From positions 4,898,001 through 4,962,000 of the forward strand of contig NZ_CP036298.1 of assembly GCF_007752135.1 (NCBI RefSeq): DNA of 64,000 nt. Reading direction: 5' to 3'. The translations under genes were made by a program, and so were the position numbers. Shown one piece after another: positions 2,367 through 17,181 of this stretch. The notes beneath the pieces are model-generated. The model worked only from the letters and a program-made list of their open reading frames with translations, had not been told where the DNA came from and did not search any database. How positions within the stretch are numbered: position 1 is the stretch's first letter; each line of letters starts with the position of its first letter. The stretch is from Aureliella helgolandensis (GTDB taxonomy: Bacteria > Planctomycetota > Planctomycetia > Pirellulales > Pirellulaceae).

Positions 2367-2527
2367 GCACGCAGGTGTTGCATGATTTCAAACCTATGAA
2401 CCTGGGAAATCCTTGAATTCCCGTTTGCACGCGAAAAACGCGTAGACACGCGGTAGCTCGGATTTTCTGCGACGCTTTAGACAACAGTCCAACCCCACTC
2501 GGTCAATCGAGTCTAGGAATCACCGCC

Positions 2528-4708
2528 ATGGATCAACTCAAACAAGTTTTTGCACAGGTCGCCAAATTTCAGTTCTGGATTATCACCGGACTGGTAGTGG
2601 TGATGTCGTGCGTTGGCTTCTTCCTGGCGCGCTCGCAGATCAACGGTCTCTACACGGCTCAGACGACCGCCCTCGACAGCCATTATTCCGGACTGGACAG
2701 CGTGCGCAGCAAAATCTCCACGCACCCCAACTCGTTCTCCCAAGAGAAAATGAATGAGATCATCGGGCAGTTGCGCGAAGATGTGCGAGTTTCCTGGGAA
2801 AAACAATATGAGCGACAAGCCCGCTTGCTCAAGTGGCGGGTCGAGGCCATTAAGAGTCCCGCTCTGGTGAAAAAACTCGAGGAATTCATGCCGATCGAGA
2901 AGAACCTAACGTTCCCTGATGAACCGGCAGGATTCACCAATTATGACCGTGAGAATTACGCCCGCTATTTTGACTTGCAAATGGAAGAGCTAGCCAAAAT
3001 CATCGGAGTGGCGTGGGTCGGTGAGGTCTCCAAGGATGCAGCCGGTGGCGGATACGGCGGCATGATGGGTGGTGGAGGCTACGGCGGTGAGGCCATGATG
3101 GGTGGAGGCAGCTACGGCGCCGAAGGCGGTTCGGGAAGCGGTTACGGCGGCACGGGCGGTGGCTATGGCGGTGAGGCCATGATGGGCGGTGGCTACGGCG
3201 GCATGATGGGTGGCGGCATGTACGGTGCCGGAGCCATGGCGAACAAGCAGCGAGACCTAGTCACTTGGCCCAAGACCAGCCAGGACCAACTCATCAGTTC
3301 GATTAAGTTGTGGACAGGGAAGGCGCCTACGGTTTACGAAATTGTGTACACCCAGGAGAACATGTGGGTCCTGGAAGGGCTACTGAACATCATCAAGAGG
3401 ACTAATGGCGATGCTCTGGCCAATTTCCAGTGTGTTATCAAGGAGATTGAATTCATCCGCATCGGTAAATCTGCCATCGGAAGCGCAGGCACCATCGACT
3501 CCATCTCCGGTGCGCGTGGCGCCATGGGTGGCGCAGGCAGCATGATGGGCGGAGAGGGCTATGGCGGCGGATACGGCGGTGAAGGAGGTATGTACAGCGG
3601 TGGTAGCGGCGGTAGCGGCTATGGATCCGAAGGTGGCGGCATGTACAGCTCCGAGGGTGGTTCCGGCGGGTATGGCGGGGAAGGCTACGGTGCTGAGGGT
3701 GGCCCCATGGTGCGAGATCCAGCGGACGGCCGCTACGTCGATGCCGCCTACCAACCCGTTAGCGGCGAGGACTTGCGAACCAAAATGAGCAGCGGTAATG
3801 CTGAGGACGCGTTTTTTGTGGTCGCCAAACGGGTACCAGTCCGCCTGCGTCTGAAAATTGATCAACGCCGCACGCAAGAGTTTCTTGCCAATTGCGGCAA
3901 TGCCGACCTCATGCTCGAAGTTCGCCAGGTTCGCTTGGGGAATACCGTAGCTGCGACGGCCGGCGGTAGTGCGAGCAGTGGCGGCTATGGCGGCTATGGC
4001 GGAATGGAGGCGGGCATGATGGGCGCCGAAAGTAGCGGGGGGTATGGTGGGGGCGGCTATGGCGGCATGGAAGGTGGCAGCGGAGGTGGTTCCTATGGCG
4101 GAGGAAGCTACGGGGGTGGTGGATACGGAGGCAGTGGGTATGGCGGAGAAGGCGGCATGTACGGTGCCGCTGGCGGTGCCGCGGCCCTCGGGAAAAACCC
4201 TTGGGATATTACCATCGAGATCTACGGCGTGGTAAACCTATATAACCCTGTGCACATCGAACAACTCGGCTTGGATAAAGTCACCGGCGATACAGAAATT
4301 GTGGCGACAGTGGATCCAGTCGAGGAGCCCGTGGAAGGTGCTGCCGGTGCAGGAAATGACGGTAACTCCCCAGCTGCGGCAGAAGAGGAAGCCGGCCCCA
4401 ATGGCGCAGGACCTAATGTTCCCGGCCCTAACGGCGTAGGTCCCAACGGTCCCGGCCCTAACGGCGCAGGCCCCAACGGTCCCGGCCCTAACGGAGCAGG
4501 TCCCAACGGTCCCGGCCCCAACGGCGCAGGTCCCAACGGTCCCGGCCCTAACGGAGCAGGCCCCAACGGTCCCGGCCCTAACGGGGCAGGGCTCAATGGG
4601 CAGGGAAATAACGGACCTGGAGCGGAAGCCGGACGACCTGCAGCACCCATCAATGGCGCAGGTACAGACGCAGCGGACAACGACGCGGGTGCCGGACAAG
4701 CTCCATAG
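2528..4708 (+). CDS. Glycine-rich inner-membrane protein of the pilus operon (PilN/PilO-like topology)
   Basis: 726 aa. A short cytoplasmic N-terminus is followed by one membrane helix (about residues 14-35) and a helical region, the topology of PilN/PilO alignment proteins. Three blocks of GGYGG/MMGGG/GSYGG-type repeats (about 172-237, 335-395 and 480-555) separate more ordinary segments at about 238-330, 396-470 and 556-600. The C-terminus carries a decapeptide repeat of the form NGPGPNGAGP (about 620-700). A run TCTAGGAATC lies before the ATG. It sits 229 bp after the pilM-like gene and 134 bp before a third protein of the same style, so co-transcription is likely. I do not recognise a named family; a role in the pilus platform is inferred from position and topology. 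Confidence 0.75.
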   Translation: MDQLKQVFAQVAKFQFWIITGLVVVMSCVGFFLARSQINGLYTAQTTALDSHYSGLDSVRSKISTHPNSFSQEKMNEIIGQLREDVRVSWEKQYERQARLLKWRVEAIKSPALVKKLEEFMPIEKNLTFPDEPAGFTNYDRENYARYFDLQMEELAKIIGVAWVGEVSKDAAGGGYGGMMGGGGYGGEAMMGGGSYGAEGGSGSGYGGTGGGYGGEAMMGGGYGGMMGGGMYGAGAMANKQRDLVTWPKTSQDQLISSIKLWTGKAPTVYEIVYTQENMWVLEGLLNIIKRTNGDALANFQCVIKEIEFIRIGKSAIGSAGTIDSISGARGAMGGAGSMMGGEGYGGGYGGEGGMYSGGSGGSGYGSEGGGMYSSEGGSGGYGGEGYGAEGGPMVRDPADGRYVDAAYQPVSGEDLRTKMSSGNAEDAFFVVAKRVPVRLRLKIDQRRTQEFLANCGNADLMLEVRQVRLGNTVAATAGGSASSGGYGGYGGMEAGMMGAESSGGYGGGGYGGMEGGSGGGSYGGGSYGGGGYGGSGYGGEGGMYGAAGGAAALGKNPWDITIEIYGVVNLYNPVHIEQLGLDKVTGDTEIVATVDPVEEPVEGAAGAGNDGNSPAAAEEEAGPNGAGPNVPGPNGVGPNGPGPNGAGPNGPGPNGAGPNGPGPNGAGPNGPGPNGAGPNGPGPNGAGLNGQGNNGPGAEAGRPAAPINGAGTDAADNDAGAGQAP
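4381..4600 (+). repeat. 30-bp DNA repeat encoding Asn-Gly-Pro/Ala-Gly-Pro decapeptides
   Basis: Inside the 3' part of the second pilus-operon gene a roughly 30-bp unit (GGCCCTAACGG followed by a GCAGG or CCCGG variant) recurs head to tail about six times, encoding alternating GPNGAGPNGP. Units differ mainly at third codon positions, so the peptide repeat is better preserved than the DNA. Confidence 0.85.
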
Positions 4709-4842: not shown

Positions 4843-7473
4843 ATGTTTGGCAAAAAGAAAAAAGAAGACGCCACAGGTGGTGACGACGCGGTCGATTCTG
4901 GCAAGCCAGCCAAACCCGCCAAGGCTCCCAAGGCAGCCAAAGAGCCAAAGGCACCCAAGGAGCCGAAGGCTCCAAAGGCTCCAAAGGTGAAAGCCGCCAA
5001 GAAGGTGGATATTCGAGCTGGTAAGAATGGCCCAGGCTTTGTCGCGTCGCACATTGAGAAGGTCATTTTCGCGGTCGTAGGCCTCGGATTCGCCTACTTT
5101 CTGTACGACGGACTCACCGCGCCTCCCTACAACCCTTCAAGAGAACCCACGAGCCTGAAGCAGCAATCCGAAGACCTGATGCGAGAGATTCGTGTCGATC
5201 ACTGGGATTCGATTGCTGAGGAACGCCAGGTTTCCCACGACTATGCCAAGAAAACAGAGGAAGCTCGATTTCCCACCGATCCGCAACGATACGGCAAAGA
5301 GCAAATCGTCTGGGACCCTAAACCAACTGGTGCCCACGAAAAGCGGTCTGACCCCGCGATCAGCCCACCACGTGAACTGGTAGCTGTAAATTTCTTTGGT
5401 TCGATCGCTGTCGAAGTCTCCAAGGATGCCCCTGAGCTCTATGAAAACTTGGAAGATGCTCCAAAGATCGAAGCCCGGACCAGTGGTCGCTCAAGAGGCC
5501 GCGGCAACCGCGGTGGAGCGGGCGGCTCTGAAGGTGGCTATGGCGGCGGCATGTATGGCGGCGGCGAAGGCGGCTCAGGCTACGGCGGGATGACGGGCGG
5601 AAGTATGGGAGGCATGGGAGCTGTGGCAGGAGCGGATGCTCCAACTCCACCCGCGCGCCGCTTAACCCCGAAATACGATTTAGGGGTCAGCGCCGGCGGT
5701 GGCATGATGGGCGGTGGCATGATGGGCGGTGGGTACGGAGGAATGGGTGGCGGCTACGGCGGTATGGCGGGAGCGCCAGCAGCTGGAGGCGGCAGCCTGA
5801 ACAACCGCACGCGCAATCAAGGCCCCAAGTTTAAGGTCGGAGCCCGGCCGATTTACATGAACGCAATTACCGCACTCGTCCCCCACAAGGAAATGGCGGA
5901 TGCCTACGCGGCTGCATTTGAAAACACGGGCAGCTTCATTTTCTCCCGGGATACCCCGCAGTATCGAGGAATTGAATTGCAACGCGTCGATGTAACCCTC
6001 AACCCAGCCCGCGAAATTGACGAATCCGAGTGGCGGACGGTGTCCGACACTGCGGACCAGTACAAATTGCAGAGTGAGCAAAAATGGGCTACCACCAACC
6101 CCAGGTTGGGTGTGCGCGTGCCCGATGTCGTCCACCAGTCGGCGGCGGATCGACGTTTAACGATGGGAATCCCCCCCATTTTGTTGCGAGATTATCGAGG
6201 ATTTGCGAAGCATCCCGACATTCCTTGGGCATGGAATTACGTACCGCCCAAGCGAGAAATCCCAGTGAATCCCGCCGGAGACGGCGAGAAGGGACCTGAA
6301 GTACCTGCGATGCCTCCGGTCGGAGGTGGTGCCGGTGGTGGAATGATGGCCGGCGGAATGATGGGTGGCGGCTCCTATGGCGGCGGCTCGTACGGTGGTG
6401 GAGGCTACGGAGGCATGGAGAGTGGCGGTTACGGCGGAGGAGGCTATGGAGGAATGGAGAGCGGCGGCTACGGCGGCGGTGGCTATGGTGGCATGGAAAG
6501 TGGCGGCTACGGCGGCGGCGGTTACGGCGGCATGGAGAGTGGCGGTTACGGCGGAGGAGGCTATGGAGGAATGGAGAGTGGTGGCGGCATGTATGGAGGT
6601 ATGGGAGGCATGGGAGGCATGGGAGGCATGGGTGCGGCAGGCGCTCCGCAGCCCGAGTACAAAATGATTCGCTGCTACGACGTTTTCCCACCCAACACGA
6701 TCCGTAACGAACTCGGCAAGGTCTATCGCTATCGCGTTCGCCTTGTCATGCGTGATCCGAATTATCCCGAGTCGAACAACATCAAGGCCCCCGAACCCAG
6801 CGAATTGAAAGATGATGTCTGGGCGCGCGTATCGGCCAACATGCAAAAGGATGCGGATAATATCAAGAAGGATCCCAACGCCGAACTGTCCCCTCGCTAC
6901 TCCGACTGGAGCACTCCAAGCGCTCCGGTACGCGTGCAATTTCCAAGTGAAGTCTTCGCCGGAACCGTGGAGTTCGACGGTCCCAAGTACTACGAGAATC
7001 CGCAAAAACCAGACGCGAAAATCCTAACCACCCTACGTGAAGCCACCGCAGAGGTCTTGGCAACCGGTTTTGACTTCCAAACTGGTGCAGAGGTTGGCGT
7101 GCAGATGGAAGATGTCCAACGCGGTAGTGTTTTCAAGACCAAGCAAGATGTCGAGCTTATCGTTCCGACCAGCAAGGTGATCAAAACGTGGAAGGACTAC
7201 AGTTTGATCAACGCGGCGACCGTGGTCGATATTCGTGGTGGCACAGAGTTGGCTGGTGACAGCCGAGATGATCCCCTCACCGCTGCTGGTGAGATGTTGA
7301 TTCTGCATCGAGACGGCCGGGTCGAGGCTACCAGCGACATCGACGATATGTTCCTCTACCGGATGTACTCTTTTGCGGATGATAAAGAGGCTGCGGAAAA
7401 TGGTGGGGCAAGCGCCGCAGCTGGAGGTTACGGAGGAGGCATGATGGGCAGTGGGGGCGGCAGCGGTTACTAG
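4843..7473 (+). CDS. Glycine-rich membrane protein of the pilus operon, third gene
   Basis: 876 aa. A strongly basic, Ala/Pro/Lys-rich cytoplasmic N-terminus (about 1-65, with repeated KAPK and KEPK) precedes one membrane helix (about 75-93) and a large exported part. That part holds Gly/Tyr/Met-rich blocks at about 215-265, 285-320 and 490-605. The last contains five near-perfect copies of a 14-residue unit ending in GGYGGMES. Between the blocks are well-mixed segments that look folded (about 325-485 and 605-850). A GGGAG sequence lies about 10 nt before the ATG at 4843. No family was recognised. Shared low-complexity composition with its two upstream neighbours argues for one complex; a pilus-platform or secretin-linking role is an inference. 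Confidence 0.72.
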   Translation: MFGKKKKEDATGGDDAVDSGKPAKPAKAPKAAKEPKAPKEPKAPKAPKVKAAKKVDIRAGKNGPGFVASHIEKVIFAVVGLGFAYFLYDGLTAPPYNPSREPTSLKQQSEDLMREIRVDHWDSIAEERQVSHDYAKKTEEARFPTDPQRYGKEQIVWDPKPTGAHEKRSDPAISPPRELVAVNFFGSIAVEVSKDAPELYENLEDAPKIEARTSGRSRGRGNRGGAGGSEGGYGGGMYGGGEGGSGYGGMTGGSMGGMGAVAGADAPTPPARRLTPKYDLGVSAGGGMMGGGMMGGGYGGMGGGYGGMAGAPAAGGGSLNNRTRNQGPKFKVGARPIYMNAITALVPHKEMADAYAAAFENTGSFIFSRDTPQYRGIELQRVDVTLNPAREIDESEWRTVSDTADQYKLQSEQKWATTNPRLGVRVPDVVHQSAADRRLTMGIPPILLRDYRGFAKHPDIPWAWNYVPPKREIPVNPAGDGEKGPEVPAMPPVGGGAGGGMMAGGMMGGGSYGGGSYGGGGYGGMESGGYGGGGYGGMESGGYGGGGYGGMESGGYGGGGYGGMESGGYGGGGYGGMESGGGMYGGMGGMGGMGGMGAAGAPQPEYKMIRCYDVFPPNTIRNELGKVYRYRVRLVMRDPNYPESNNIKAPEPSELKDDVWARVSANMQKDADNIKKDPNAELSPRYSDWSTPSAPVRVQFPSEVFAGTVEFDGPKYYENPQKPDAKILTTLREATAEVLATGFDFQTGAEVGVQMEDVQRGSVFKTKQDVELIVPTSKVIKTWKDYSLINAATVVDIRGGTELAGDSRDDPLTAAGEMLILHRDGRVEATSDIDDMFLYRMYSFADDKEAAENGGASAAAGGYGGGMMGSGGGSGY
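6388..6590 (+). repeat. 42-bp in-frame repeat encoding GGYGGMES units
   Basis: Five copies of a 42-bp unit within the third pilus gene encode a GGYGGMES-containing 14-residue repeat. Copies differ by synonymous changes, suggesting expansion and then drift under selection on the protein. Confidence 0.85.
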
Positions 7474-12863: not shown

Positions 12864-13214
12864 GTGTACGATTGGATTGTCCGTCGCAGTGTCAGCGATC
12901 GGGGCGGACTGCCCTTTCACGCATCCACGGCTGGGGCGTCTCGTTCCCCTGCGTCTCAAATTGCGGAAGCCCCGTCGTAAGTCATCCGTGGACGCAATCC
13001 CACGGCCAGGCTCTGCTCCTCGCTCGGCCACTCCAGACGCTATGCGCTGCCTGTCTCGCCACATGGTCGGGCGTGAACAGAAGATTTCCCGGGCACTGAT
13101 TGGACTGAGCATTACCAGAAATTGCTAAAGTTCTGGTTCTGTGTGTCGCAATTTTGGGTTGGACCGTCTCTTGTCTAGGGAAGGGCACAATAGCCGAGGC
13201 CAGAGAACTACGGA
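12864..13214. other. Intergenic region before the ECF sigma gene
   Basis: About 350 bp without a supportable gene. It presumably carries the sigma-factor promoter; no clear motif was found. Confidence 0.45.
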
Positions 13215-13580
13215 ATGCAAACCACCCAACAACTTGTCGAACTAGCCAAAGCGGGCCAACGCGATGCAATTGGTTTGCTGGTGCAGCGCTACGAGCGTCT
13301 CGCAGTCACTACTGCTTGGTCGATCGTGGGAGACTTTCATTGGGCCCAGGATGTAGCCCAGGAGTCCTTTGTGACTGCATTCCAACAAATAGCTCAGCTT
13401 CGCTCGGGAGCGACCTTCGGAAGTTGGCTGCTGGTCAGTGTTCGTCGGAATGCTATGCGGCATAAGCAGCGACAGCGAGAGGTAACCACCGACTTTCCCA
13501 TGAATGAGCTGGTGGCAATCTCCAACGGATGGATCGACCAATTCGAAGAATTGCTTCCGCTCTTGAAAGAATCCATGTAA
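13215..13580 (+). pseudogene. ECF sigma factor, 5' part (region 2), split by an IS element
   Basis: 121 codons before a stop created at the IS junction. The sequence has sigma-70 region 2: a KAGQRDAIGLLVQRY start, then DFHWAQDVAQESFVTAFQQI (core-binding and -10 recognition helices), then FGSWLLVSVRRNAMRHKQRQ. Region 4 is missing here and is found at 15780-15952. Joining base 13578 directly to 15780 gives a continuous 178-codon frame through TTC at the junction, the normal length of an ECF factor. The TAA that ends this fragment (13578-13580) is partly IS sequence. The fragment should not work as a sigma factor because it cannot contact the -35 element. Confidence 0.88.
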
Positions 13581-13593
13581 GTCCTGGGTTTGG
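13579..13593 (+). repeat. Left terminal inverted repeat of the IS
   Basis: AAGTCCTGGGTTTGG, matched in inverted orientation at 15766-15780. Confidence 0.85.
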
Positions 13594-13688
13594 GGCGGGA
13601 GCCGTTCGAATAAAATCTGGTGACTCAGCCCCGTGATCTCGGGTTGCCGGAAGCAACCACTGTCACAAATGTGCCAACCCCAAACCCA
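13585..13688 (+). promoter_or_regulatory. Inverted repeat spanning the transposase leader
   Basis: TGGGTTTGGGG (13585-13595) is exactly complementary to CCCCAAACCCA (13678-13688), which touches the Shine-Dalgarno AAAGGA (13688-13693) of the transposase. A smaller hairpin GGTTGC/GCAACC (13642-13658) lies inside. RNA made by read-through from the flanking gene could fold and hide the ribosome site; this function is inferred. Confidence 0.55.
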
Positions 13689-13703
13689 AAGGACACATGG
13701 ACT

Positions 13704-15095
13704 ATGAAGATTCTCGCTCTTGACCTCGGCAAATTCAATACGATGTGCTGTTTCTTTGATACAAAAACTCGCAAACACTCCTTCCTCAATGCCACTACCG
13801 ACCGCAACTACCTCTCGACTGTCTTCAAAAAGCATAAGATCGACTTGGTGGTTATGGAGGCGTGTGGTCCGTCAGGCTGGATCAACGATCTAGCTGAGTC
13901 TTTGGGCCTCCAAACGTTCGTCTGCTCGACCAACGAAGAGGCTTGGAAGTGGTCCAACGTTAAACGCAAAACTGACAAGGATGATGCGCTCAAGCTGGCG
14001 CGTATGGCTACCATGAGTGAACTCAAGCCGGTTCACATGCCCTCCGAAACACATCGTGAGTTTCGCTCTCTGGTTAAGTACCGCAAAACACTCGACTGGC
14101 GGATCAACAAGATCAAGTGCACCATTCGCGCGTGGTTCGTCAACCACGGCATCTCGATCGACAGGGGGGACAAAGCTTGGCACACCGGACGCGCATTGAT
14201 CAACTCGTATCGCAAACCACTTACGGAGTGCTCCGCGAAAGAGTTGTGGAAAGGTGAGCTCGATCTTGAATTGACGCAGCTCGATTCTCTGTCCACACAA
14301 CTTGACGGGGTCGTCAAGAAACTCGAAGCGATCGGCAAGGCCGATCCTCGCATCGTACGACTGCGCACGATTCCCGGCGTTGGACCACGCACGGCTGAAA
14401 TCCTGGTGGCCTGCATCGACGATTCGCACCGCTTTGAGAACGGACGCCAAGTGTCGGCCTACTTCGGCTTGGTACCTCGGCAATTTCAATCTGGTGAAAC
14501 CGATCGCAACGGCCGCATCACCAAGCGGGGCAACCCGCTGGCTCGGACCATTCTTGTCGAGTGCGCTTGGGCCTCGCTGCGATACAATCCGTGGTCCAAG
14601 GGAGTCTACGATCGCATCTGCGGTAAGCAGAAGACACGCAAGAAGAAGGCGGGAGTGGCGTTGGCTCGTAAAATCGCGGTGATTGCTTGGGCCATGCTCC
14701 GCGATGAAAAGGACTGGGATCCGGTCACCATGATTCGTACTACCAAGTCGTTCGGTGGAACGCTTCCCTTGGATGAAGAGACCTTTCGAACGATGCCTCC
14801 TAAGGAGAACTCGGACCAACGTAAGAGCCGCCTTCGCAGGGAAGCCCGCGAAGCCGAAGAGCTCACGCAGCGTTGCGCCGCCAAGGCGTCGCCCACGACA
14901 AAGTCAGCCAGCAAATCCAAGTCGAAGCCCACGCAGGTTGGTAAGTCGACGAAACAGCAGTCTGCCAAGTCGCAGGCGAAATTGCAGGCGAAATCAATCA
15001 CCACGCCGAGAAGTCCCATTGGCTCAAAGTCGAAACAAGCCACCACGAAAACCGCCCAACCACGGCGAGCAAGAAAGCCAGTATCCGCTGCCTGA
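13704..15095 (+). CDS. IS110-family DEDD transposase (recombinase)
   Basis: 463 aa. The N-terminal RuvC-like DEDD domain shows D in LALDLGK, E in VVMEACGPSGW, and the D/D pair in RKTDKDDALKLARM. The C-terminal Transposase_20 domain has IPGVGPRTAEILVACIDDS with a helix-hairpin-helix look, then RQFQSGETDRNGRITKRGN, where the Ser of QSG is the likely catalytic nucleophile. A Lys/Ser/Thr/Pro-rich basic tail of about 75 residues follows the conserved domain and is unusual for the family. ATG 13704 is preferred over the upstream in-frame GTG because AAAGGA sits 10 nt before it and the catalytic domain starts at residue 2. The protein looks intact, so the element may still be active. Confidence 0.93.
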   Translation: MKILALDLGKFNTMCCFFDTKTRKHSFLNATTDRNYLSTVFKKHKIDLVVMEACGPSGWINDLAESLGLQTFVCSTNEEAWKWSNVKRKTDKDDALKLARMATMSELKPVHMPSETHREFRSLVKYRKTLDWRINKIKCTIRAWFVNHGISIDRGDKAWHTGRALINSYRKPLTECSAKELWKGELDLELTQLDSLSTQLDGVVKKLEAIGKADPRIVRLRTIPGVGPRTAEILVACIDDSHRFENGRQVSAYFGLVPRQFQSGETDRNGRITKRGNPLARTILVECAWASLRYNPWSKGVYDRICGKQKTRKKKAGVALARKIAVIAWAMLRDEKDWDPVTMIRTTKSFGGTLPLDEETFRTMPPKENSDQRKSRLRREAREAEELTQRCAAKASPTTKSASKSKSKPTQVGKSTKQQSAKSQAKLQAKSITTPRSPIGSKSKQATTKTAQPRRARKPVSAA

Positions 15096-15765
15096 TGAGC
15101 GTACCCCTTAGCACACTAACATCGACAGAACGAATCGGCCTTGCTCGCCCTTTTTCCCCACCGCTACGAGGGACAACCTGTACGCGCCGCCTGATGCATT
15201 GACATCGGCAGAACGAATCGGCACCTCGTAGCCTTTTGACACGTCACTAGTTGAACAGACTCATTCAATACCGATACCAACTGAGTTCACAGGAGCCCTT
15301 TCGCCAGACACGAGAACACTTGACAAGGACAAGACCAACCCAAATGTGCTGAGCACCGACACCAATTGACCACTGACTGATTCCCATGGACCGATCGCGC
15401 AGGATCGCCGGAACGTCAGACACGTCGCCCTAAAGAATGTGCCACACCAACGGAAGGTAGCTTGCTGCTCACCGAAGCCTCCAGGCAAGCTGCAGCCAAC
15501 ACGGACTCATCATCGACAACGATGCTTTGAACCGTGCATGGATAACTGAGGGAACGCGACCTGCTCCAAGTGAGCAGGAGCAGAAGTGTGAAACGCGTTC
15601 GCACCTCGAATAGTCGTTTAATCAAACATCCTTGACAAGCACATTGTGCACCGGCCGAAGCGATACTCCCTCGAAGCTCTCTAGCGAAGGCAACTTCCAA
15701 GTGGCTAAACCGCGTCATGATATGACTGAATAAAAGAATTCAAAAAAAGTGGCGACCGTCACTTG
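15096..15765 (+). ncRNA. Non-coding right end of the IS, candidate bridge-RNA region
   Basis: No gene is supportable in these 670 bp. In IS1111-type elements a structured guide (bridge) RNA is known to come from the non-coding end next to the transposase, and this is the only long one here. Visible features are a 21-bp near-direct repeat ACATCGRCAGAACGAATCGG (15119-15139 and 15202-15222) and a hairpin CCTGCTC/GAGCAGG (15560-15578). RNA limits cannot be set by eye. Confidence 0.4.
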
Positions 15766-15780
15766 CCAAACCCAGGACTT
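15766..15780 (+). repeat. Right terminal inverted repeat of the IS
   Basis: CCAAACCCAGGACTT, reverse complement of the left end at 13579-13593. Confidence 0.85.
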
Positions 15781-15952
15781 CATAGTCGAGTTGCCGTCAC
15801 AGGAATACGAAGTTGTGAGTTATCGCTATCTCAATGGTTTCAGTATTTGCCAAATCTCAGAAGAAACTCAACGTCCCATTGGGACGATCACCAAGCAGTT
15901 GTCACGTGCAGTCCATCGCATGCGAGAAATCGTAGCGGAGCTTGAACGATGA
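15780..15952 (+). pseudogene. ECF sigma factor, 3' part (region 4), split by the IS
   Basis: Encodes the sigma region 4 helix-turn-helix: YEVVSYRYLNGFSICQIS followed by RPIGTITKQLSRAVHRMREI. The frame is open back into the IS right end, with a GTG at 15749 that could start a 67-residue region 4 peptide. The stop TGA overlaps the ATG of the next gene (ATGA, 15949-15952), so translation was coupled to the anti-sigma-like partner. Both halves look undamaged apart from the insertion, suggesting a recent event. Confidence 0.87.
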
Positions 15953-17181
15953 ATATGAATCCATCCCCAGAATCTGATTCGGATATTGAAAAACAACTGT
16001 ACCGAGCAGGACAGTCTCTGCGCGAGAACATCTCACTTTCAGAGCGTGTTCTCGAGCAACTTGAAATCAAGGATGCCCCCCAGCCTATCGTTCGTCCGGC
16101 CCCCACAACTCGGTGGTCTCGATTCACTCACTTTGGAGAACTAACCATGCTACAGAAACTGTCGATTACCAGCCTAGCCGCTTCGGCGACTCTGGTGCTG
16201 CTCGCTTGGGTTGCCACCTCCGCCACTCACACCTCCTTGGCACAGGTCGTTGAAAATGTTCGCAAGGCGACCAGCTACCAAGCTGATGTTCGCATGGATG
16301 CAGCGGATCGAAATGTTACCGGCCGAATCTACTGGAGGGCTCCGATGGATGTGAGAATGGAGTTTGACAACCGCCTCGGCGAGCCGCGCGAAATCGACAT
16401 TTTCTTCCGCAACAAGCCTGGAATTGGTATATCTAACAAGACTCGAACCTATCGCATCCATGCCGCTCGCAGCGGCGTTAGCTCCCCCATCATGCAGCTG
16501 CAGGAGCTCCCGAATTTCGAAGCAGAAGCGCAGCGAAGGCTGGGAACAAAGCGAATCCAAGGAATTGAGTGCGAGGGTTTTGAAATTGAAGTATCGAAAA
16601 TTGATCCGAACGTTGGTGCGGGAACGCTCACCGTGTGGGTCAACCCAGTAAATCAACTCCCTAACACGGTCTCGATCAGCTTCAGTGATCTAGCCTCGCC
16701 GACCATGATTTTTGAGAATATCATTTGGAATAACGCTTTAGAGGACGCTTTGTTCTCCACTGCTCCCCCCGTGGGCTACGAGTTGGCGCAGCCAGCTAAA
16801 CACAGCAATCCGAGCGTTGCAGAACAAGTCTCTGCAATCATCCAGTCGCTGCGAATTTTTGCCGAGTTGAACGACGGCAAGTACCCTCAAGTCAGCGTAG
16901 TCTATGGCGACGTTATTCAAGCCCAATTGCTAAAGCTGGGTGGGTACAGCATGCCTGTGGACCGCGAGCAAGTACGAGATAAAGAGTATCAAGAGATTAT
17001 GGAATCTACCCGAGGATGGGCAATCATGAATGGCATTATGCGGGACAACGCATACGCGTCTTACCATGGATTCGAAGTCACCCCGCAGGATTCCGACCAA
17101 GCCCTCTTCCAATGGAGGCTGGATAACGGCCACGAGCAGGTCATCTACGGAGATCTGCATGCCGAGACCTTGGAAAGATAG
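15949..17181 (+). CDS. Membrane anti-sigma-like protein with LolA-like exported domain
   Basis: 410 aa. A cytoplasmic N-terminus of about 70 residues, where an anti-sigma domain would bind the sigma factor, precedes one membrane helix (about 71-92). An exported domain of about 300 residues follows. Its part at about 95-270 (VENVRKATSYQADVRM, GRIYWRAPMDVRMEF, ECEGFEIEV, LTVWVNPVNQLP) resembles LolA/outer-membrane lipoprotein-sorting folds, seen in many planctomycete sigma-linked membrane proteins. The gene overlaps the sigma gene by 4 nt. No zinc-type anti-sigma motif (HxxxCxxC) is present, so the anti-sigma role rests on context. With the sigma gene split, this protein is probably an orphan regulator. 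Confidence 0.72.
   Translation: MNMNPSPESDSDIEKQLYRAGQSLRENISLSERVLEQLEIKDAPQPIVRPAPTTRWSRFTHFGELTMLQKLSITSLAASATLVLLAWVATSATHTSLAQVVENVRKATSYQADVRMDAADRNVTGRIYWRAPMDVRMEFDNRLGEPREIDIFFRNKPGIGISNKTRTYRIHAARSGVSSPIMQLQELPNFEAEAQRRLGTKRIQGIECEGFEIEVSKIDPNVGAGTLTVWVNPVNQLPNTVSISFSDLASPTMIFENIIWNNALEDALFSTAPPVGYELAQPAKHSNPSVAEQVSAIIQSLRIFAELNDGKYPQVSVVYGDVIQAQLLKLGGYSMPVDREQVRDKEYQEIMESTRGWAIMNGIMRDNAYASYHGFEVTPQDSDQALFQWRLDNGHEQVIYGDLHAETLER

What the first reader, a model, noticed from the sequence alone, without database searches (positions are those of the whole stretch)
13215..15952. ECF sigma factor gene split by an IS whose removal restores the frame exactly
Region 2 (13215-13578) and region 4 (15780-15952) are separated by an element with matching 14-15 bp terminal inverted repeats. 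Joining base 13578 to base 15780 gives TTC at the junction and a continuous 178-codon ECF factor. Both halves are otherwise intact, so the event looks recent and possibly reversible by precise excision.
Basis: partly seen in the sequence, partly recalled or inferred. Interest (0 to 1): 0.75.

Follow-up and report, generated by a model that had tools for sequence, protein, structure and literature searches.

The report
Integron-targeting mobile element splits sigma factor

Summary
The core observation holds: ECF regions 2 and 4 are split by one IS with perfect 15-bp inverted repeats. The proposed junction is wrong. Five uninterrupted paralogous cassettes in the same genome show that a sister copy inserted at AA^CG with no target duplication. 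By the same ends, this IS is 13568-15786 (2219 bp).

The element is an IS110-superfamily IS with IS1111-like features. Its usual target is the R'' box of integron attC sites: 70 of 88 credible right ends in Pirellulaceae abut an attC. The host genome has an IntI gene and at least 128 attC-like matches. The ECF copy is an off-target insertion, possibly at an attC half-site mimic. It is recent (identical to a sister copy over 2223 nt). Self-driven precise excision looks unlikely: no target duplication, and a studied IS1111 member does not detectably rejoin its target. A guide RNA is inferred, not shown.

The parts
13215..13567 (+). 5' part of the ECF sigma factor gene (region 2); the frame reads on for KESM in the IS and stops at 13578-13580
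   Evidence: Pfam Sigma70_r2; ORF list; junction
13568..15786 (+). insertion sequence, 2219 bp, ends AGAATCCATGT... and ...CATAGT, no target duplication
   Evidence: copy alignment, related elements, five empty paralogous sites of a sister copy
13566..13567 (+). target bases AA left of the element (CG at 15787-15788 on the right)
   Evidence: sequence and natural attC sites
13579..13593 (+). left subterminal inverted repeat, 15 bp
15766..15780 (-). right subterminal inverted repeat, 15 bp
13704..15095 (+). IS110-superfamily transposase, 463 aa from the ATG at 13704 (GL-P----SG motif present as GLVPRQFQSG)
   Evidence: Pfam, NCBIfam NF033542, translation; motif definition from PMC11187229 section 6
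15096..15786 (+). long downstream non-coding region of the IS
   Evidence: ORF list; end
15428..15632 (+). segment with a conserved RNA fold, candidate source of the guide RNA (guide bases not shown)
   Evidence: fold of 10 related elements, 37 pairs, 15 with double changes; complementarity test negative
15787..15952 (+). 3' part of the ECF sigma factor gene (region 4)
   Evidence: Pfam Sigma70_r4_2
15949..17181 (+). 410-aa protein gene overlapping the ECF stop by 4 bp, probable operon partner (perhaps an anti-sigma protein: inference)
   Evidence: ORF list; homologues sit directly behind ECF homologues in L012 and L013; no Pfam or NCBIfam family

Best explanation
An IS110-superfamily element with IS1111-like anatomy, whose usual target is the R'' box of integron attC sites (insertion at AA^CG with its right end toward L''), transposed recently into a secondary site in an ECF sigma factor gene. 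The gene's empty site, TTGAA^CGAGTTGCCGTCACAGG, has the near-invariant AACG and a TCAC at about the L'' position. The insertion separates region 2 from region 4 and ends the first half after four junction/IS codons, so a working ECF is not expected (inference). Target choice is presumably made by a guide RNA from the downstream non-coding region, as published for IS1111 and IS110 members; here only a conserved RNA fold was shown. With no target duplication, and in a family in which one studied member does not detectably rejoin its target, precise self-reversal is unlikely (inference).
For: Domains; 15-bp repeats; four copies; identical sister copy; end sequences shared by related elements; attC-like fold of right flanks, 17 pairs, 14 with double changes; 128 attC-like matches in the own genome and IntI over cut-off at 700495-701427; natural empty sites; five empty paralogues of the L002 cassette; 172-aa ECF without a gap at the junction; 70 of 88 credible right ends abut an attC, 60 of 78 without the model's training members (overlap counted by eye); 8 of 16 non-attC sites carry T[CA]A at +11/+12 against 12 of 561 AACG sites in the window and 1 of 18 chance pattern matches; ECF site 12th of 123,482 in a half-site scan that allows one spacer base.
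Against: No guide/target complementarity above shuffles. Transposase length (463 aa) and terminal extensions (11 and 6 bp) depart from IS1111. The junction of the ECF copy itself rests on sister copies and homologues, not on an empty orthologous site. Two elements (L043, L035) read AAC|GAATCC on the left, so the left boundary is uncertain by one base there.
Confidence: 0.85

Rival explanations
1. One reading: the element ends at the inverted repeats, and precise excision joins 13578 to 15780 (TTC), giving a 178-aa ECF.
For: Perfect repeats; the frame is kept.
Against: Shared sequence outside the repeats in all four genomic copies; five empty paralogous sites of a sister copy; 6-residue insert absent from four homologues, lower BLAST scores (160 and 159 against 166 and 166 for the two best).
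Confidence: 0.03
2. The element always uses one fixed 16-bp target, AAAGAATCCATAGTCG, and CAT is a shared core; 2207 bp were inserted.
For: All four copies share these flanks; one exact unoccupied 16-mer in the genome.
Against: Empty paralogues lack AGAATCCAT; natural attC sites lack it; the unoccupied 16-mer lies in ftsH, where the residues align without a gap to a solved FtsH, so it is a chance match.
Confidence: 0.03
3. The ECF site is a random, sequence-poor landing with no attC resemblance beyond AACG.
For: Ungapped matrix rank 27,000 of 123,500; 8 of 16 non-attC sites lack the L''-like T[CA]A.
Against: Rank 12 of 123,482 when one spacer base is allowed; enrichment of T[CA]A among non-attC sites.
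Confidence: 0.3
4. The two halves are used as separate functional genes.
For: Both halves are otherwise intact; the region-4 frame has an in-frame GTG inside the IS right end and a TTG soon after the junction.
Against: The inserted element is identical to a sister copy, so the split is young; homologues are single ORFs.
Confidence: 0.05

Closest known systems
IS1111-attC group (ISKpn4, ISPst6, ISPa21 and others; Tetu & Holmes 2008 and Post & Hall 2009 seen only as cited in papers consulted here)
   Same: IS110-superfamily transposase, subterminal inverted repeats, long downstream non-coding region, insertion at integron attC sites.
   Different: Transposase 463 aa against 330-350 aa for IS1111; longer terminal extensions; planctomycete host. 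None of the 20 plasmid hits listed (of 316 records) was named as one of these IS, and the best hit was 48% identical, in Acaryochloris. Whether the insertion point in attC is the same was not tested.
ISEc11 and ISPa11 (IS1111 members with a demonstrated seekRNA, PMC11187229)
   Same: Subterminal repeats, downstream non-coding region, specific target, no target duplication.
   Different: Different target; their RNA was shown by experiment, here only a conserved fold was computed.
IS621 (IS110 family, bridge RNA; PMC11208160 and PMC11208158 seen in the search listing only)
   Same: Same DEDD superfamily; RNA-guided by published work.
   Different: Per PMC11187229 the IS110 type has its non-coding region mainly upstream and lacks clear subterminal repeats; here it is downstream, with repeats.
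Insertions of class C group II introns at attC (mentioned in a PMC9229058 passage)
   Same: Another mobile element kind that uses attC.
   Different: An intron with a reverse transcriptase, unrelated to a DEDD transposase (recalled).

Membership tests
IS110/IS1111 superfamily | DEDD transposase with Transposase_20 domain | tested here: met
   PF01548 E 1.1e-11, PF02371 E 7.4e-28; NF033542 238 bits over cut-off 140
IS1111 family | subterminal inverted repeats | tested here: met
   15-bp repeat, 11 bp inside the left end and 6 bp inside the right end
IS1111 family | longer non-coding region downstream of tnp | tested here: met
   691 nt at 15096-15786
IS1111 family | GL-P----S(T)G motif in the C-terminal domain | tested here: met
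   GLVPRQFQSG; definition in PMC11187229 section 6
IS1111 family | transposase of 330-350 aa | tested here: not met
   463 aa, with a long lysine/serine-rich tail; range. I therefore say IS1111-like, not a member
IS1111 family | 7-bp extension left of the repeat (and 3 bp on the right, recalled) | tested here: not met
   11 and 6 bp here; the 7-bp rule is in a passage of PMC11187229
IS1111 family | no target duplication | tested here: met
   empty and occupied sites compared for sister copy L002
IS1111 family | guide RNA from the non-coding region matching the target | tested here: inconclusive
   conserved fold, but matches to the attC consensus do not exceed shuffles
IS1111-attC group | insertion at attC sites | tested here: met
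   70 of 88 credible right ends; 3 of 4 copies in the own genome, not the ECF copy
IS1111-attC group | same insertion position in attC and kinship with ISKpn4/ISPst6 | not tested
   the founding papers are not held (tried one)
ECF sigma factor | regions 2 and 4 in one protein of about 170-190 aa | tested here: met
   both domains; joined 172 aa aligns to four homologues
integron | IntI plus attC arrays in the host genome | tested here: met
   TIGR02249 359.5 bits, cut-off 265, at 700495-701427 (over the cut-off in 0 of 14 control genomes); attC-like arrays

The most novel reading that the evidence does not exclude
This IS lineage, spread through Pirellulaceae and with a cyanobacterial cousin that keeps the same end sequences, reads the R''-spacer-L'' half of attC as ordinary double-stranded sequence rather than as a folded hairpin, so half-site mimics inside host genes become off-targets. 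A copy that lands there, such as the one in the ECF gene, may be trapped because its flanks no longer match the guide needed for leaving.
Probability: 0.3. Interest if true: 0.55.

Novelty: new variant of a known kind. Interest (0 to 1): 0.42.

Why it matters
It gives an insertion point, fixed by empty sites, for an attC-targeting IS lineage in Planctomycetes, and ties a family of RNA-guided insertion sequences to the large cassette arrays of these bacteria. The natural off-target sites, the ECF gene among them, allow the target rules of such a system to be tested. It also corrects a tempting misreading: inverted repeats need not be the ends of an IS, and a restored frame does not prove a junction.

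Tried and rejected
Fixed 16-bp target: supported at first by one exact unoccupied match (L006); dropped once empty sites were read and L006 proved to be native ftsH sequence. L006 as an excision scar: rejected for the same reason. Ungapped half-site matrix for the ECF site: failed; the gapped version was made after that failure. Guide/target complementarity in the non-coding region: not above shuffles; for the 205-nt segment 39 to 49 of 60 shuffles, and for the whole region 9 to 29 of 60, reached the observed score. Rfam search of 13000-16500: no match up to E 1. Orthologues of the ECF: 4 of 15 genus genomes examined (own included) match at E up to 1e-15, the closest 47-49% identical (G011, G008); no strain with an empty orthologous site. 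Kinship with gammaproteobacterial attC elements was not settled. The Acaryochloris plasmid element keeps similar end sequences; I saw no attC beside its right end by eye, without running the model. One search counted 71 attC-adjacent ends; one was an inner duplicate end in L154, so the recount is 70. Papers: the searches listed nothing that I recognised as an attC-targeting IS in Planctomycetes; this is from listings, and the two founding papers are not held.

Full report
What is there. The window is G000:C1:4898001-4962000 of an 8.44-Mb single-contig genome. Relatives of its IS lie in MAG contigs titled Pirellula or other Planctomycetes, so the host is Pirellula-like; its name is not known. 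Sigma region 2 lies at 13215-13577 and region 4 at 15782-15949. Between them is an IS110-superfamily element with a 463-aa transposase and a perfect 15-bp inverted repeat. The genome holds four full copies and one short match. This copy is 100% identical to one sister over 2223 nt, 99.8% to another and 97.3% to the fourth.

Where the element ends. The four copies share sequence outside the repeats: AAAGAATCCATGTA on the left, TCATAGTCG on the right. Related elements in other Pirellulaceae, mostly 70-80% identical, keep these outer sequences with few variants. Most of their right flanks fold as an attC-like hairpin: 11 such flanks give 17 consensus pairs, 14 with double compensatory changes. 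A covariance model from them finds 128 matches at E up to 0.1 in the own genome, a lower bound since 150 candidates were scored, and 157 matches at E up to 0.001 over 13 sources, none of the listed rows in the window. An integron integrase over the curated cut-off lies at 700495-701427, next to one array. Natural sites read ..AACG, 4-5 nt, then L''. In 60 own-genome sites, a part of those found and aligned on an AACG-like anchor, A and A are in 60 and C and G in 59. Occupied sites read ..AA|AGAATCCATGT ... CATAGT|CG. Five uninterrupted paralogues of the cassette occupied by sister copy L002 (74-94% identical over 112-310 bp) read GAGAA|CG (four) or GGGAA|CG (one) where L002 reads GAGAA|IS|CG. 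So the IS inserts at AA^CG without target duplication. In the window it is 13568-15786, 2219 bp. Two related elements have C instead of A as the first base, so the left edge is uncertain by one base there.

The ECF gene. Joining 13567 to 15787 gives 172 aa, the length of homologues L012, L013 and L023, gapless at the junction (ELLPLLNELPSQE against ELMPLLARLPEQE and DILPLIDQLPSHE). A fourth homologue, L028, is 178 aa with its extra residues elsewhere. The two best homologues, from genus relatives G008 and G011, sit directly before homologues of the 410-aa downstream protein. The region-4 half has an in-frame GTG inside the IS end, so a short separate product cannot be excluded.

Target use across the family. 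The exact right end GGACTTCATAGTCG occurs 106 times, in 54 of 241 Pirellulaceae genomes, against 11 matches of the reversed control (my count of the table). All 106 were classified: 88 have a repeat-like sequence just inside, 18 do not. Of the 88, 70 abut an attC by the model within 9 nt; 10 of these were in its training set, leaving 60 of 78. One of the other 18 is an inner duplicate end (L154) and one has too little flank (L150). Of the remaining 16, 8 carry T[CA]A at +11 or +12, counted from the first A of AACG, against 12 of 561 AACG sites in the window (binomial P 5e-10) and 1 of the 18 pattern matches without a repeat. The +12 option was admitted after seeing the ECF site and L048; at +11 alone the count is 5 of 16 and leaves out the ECF site. 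I read this as moderate support for a half-site mimic. Some of the 16 may be decayed attC sites.

How it likely works. Published work on IS1111 members reports an RNA from the downstream non-coding region that finds the target, a circular intermediate, a need for target-derived flanks on the donor, and no detected rejoined target for ISEc11 (PMC11187229: abstract, sections 6, 8, 9 and 13, and passages). Here the downstream region has a 205-nt segment with a conserved fold (10 elements, 37 pairs, 15 with double changes). I could not show which bases read the target: matches to the attC consensus do not exceed shuffles. So RNA guidance is inferred from the family. If the ISEc11 rules hold, the ECF copy, with poor flanks and no target duplication, would rarely leave precisely. 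A deletion between the CAT triplets near the two ends would also keep the frame and leave 12 nt (inference).

Known or new. Insertion of IS1111-group elements at attC is established (passages of PMC11616780, PMC11089894 and PMC9229058; the last found none at attC in Shewanella). This element shares that habit and four IS1111 features, but its transposase is longer and its terminal extensions differ, so I call it IS1111-like rather than a member. Similar ends occur in a 48%-identical element on an Acaryochloris plasmid. I rate it a new variant of a known kind. The split gene itself is an ordinary insertion.

Noticed in passing
own genome G000:C1, about 668-701, 1515-1535, 5496-5578, 6612-6630 and 6845-6880 kb (L092-L099): Several clusters of attC-like sites 0.4-1 kb apart, a very large cassette load, with one IntI over cut-off at 700495-701427. 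Some cassettes occur in duplicate in different arrays.
   Followed up: partly
window 15114-15139 and 15197-15222: Two copies, 83 bp apart, of a 26-bp motif with CAGAACGAATCGGC in the IS non-coding region; a similar pair recurs in several related elements. It resembles the left junction; function unknown.
   Followed up: partly
L154, positions 301 and 327 (G171): Two right ends 26 bp apart beside one attC, as if a second insertion had been almost wholly deleted.
   Followed up: no
L058 (953 bp) and L061 (about 680 bp): Internally deleted relatives that keep both ends, like non-autonomous derivatives.
   Followed up: no
L219, about 2400-3900 (Acaryochloris marina plasmid pREC1): A 48%-identical transposase flanked by AGAATCCATGTAAGCC and GGCTTCATAGTCG: nearly the same outer ends in another phylum.
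   Followed up: partly
window 15949-17181: 410-aa protein with a probable membrane segment and no Pfam or NCBIfam family, behind ECF genes in two relatives too: a possible anti-sigma protein family.
   Followed up: partly
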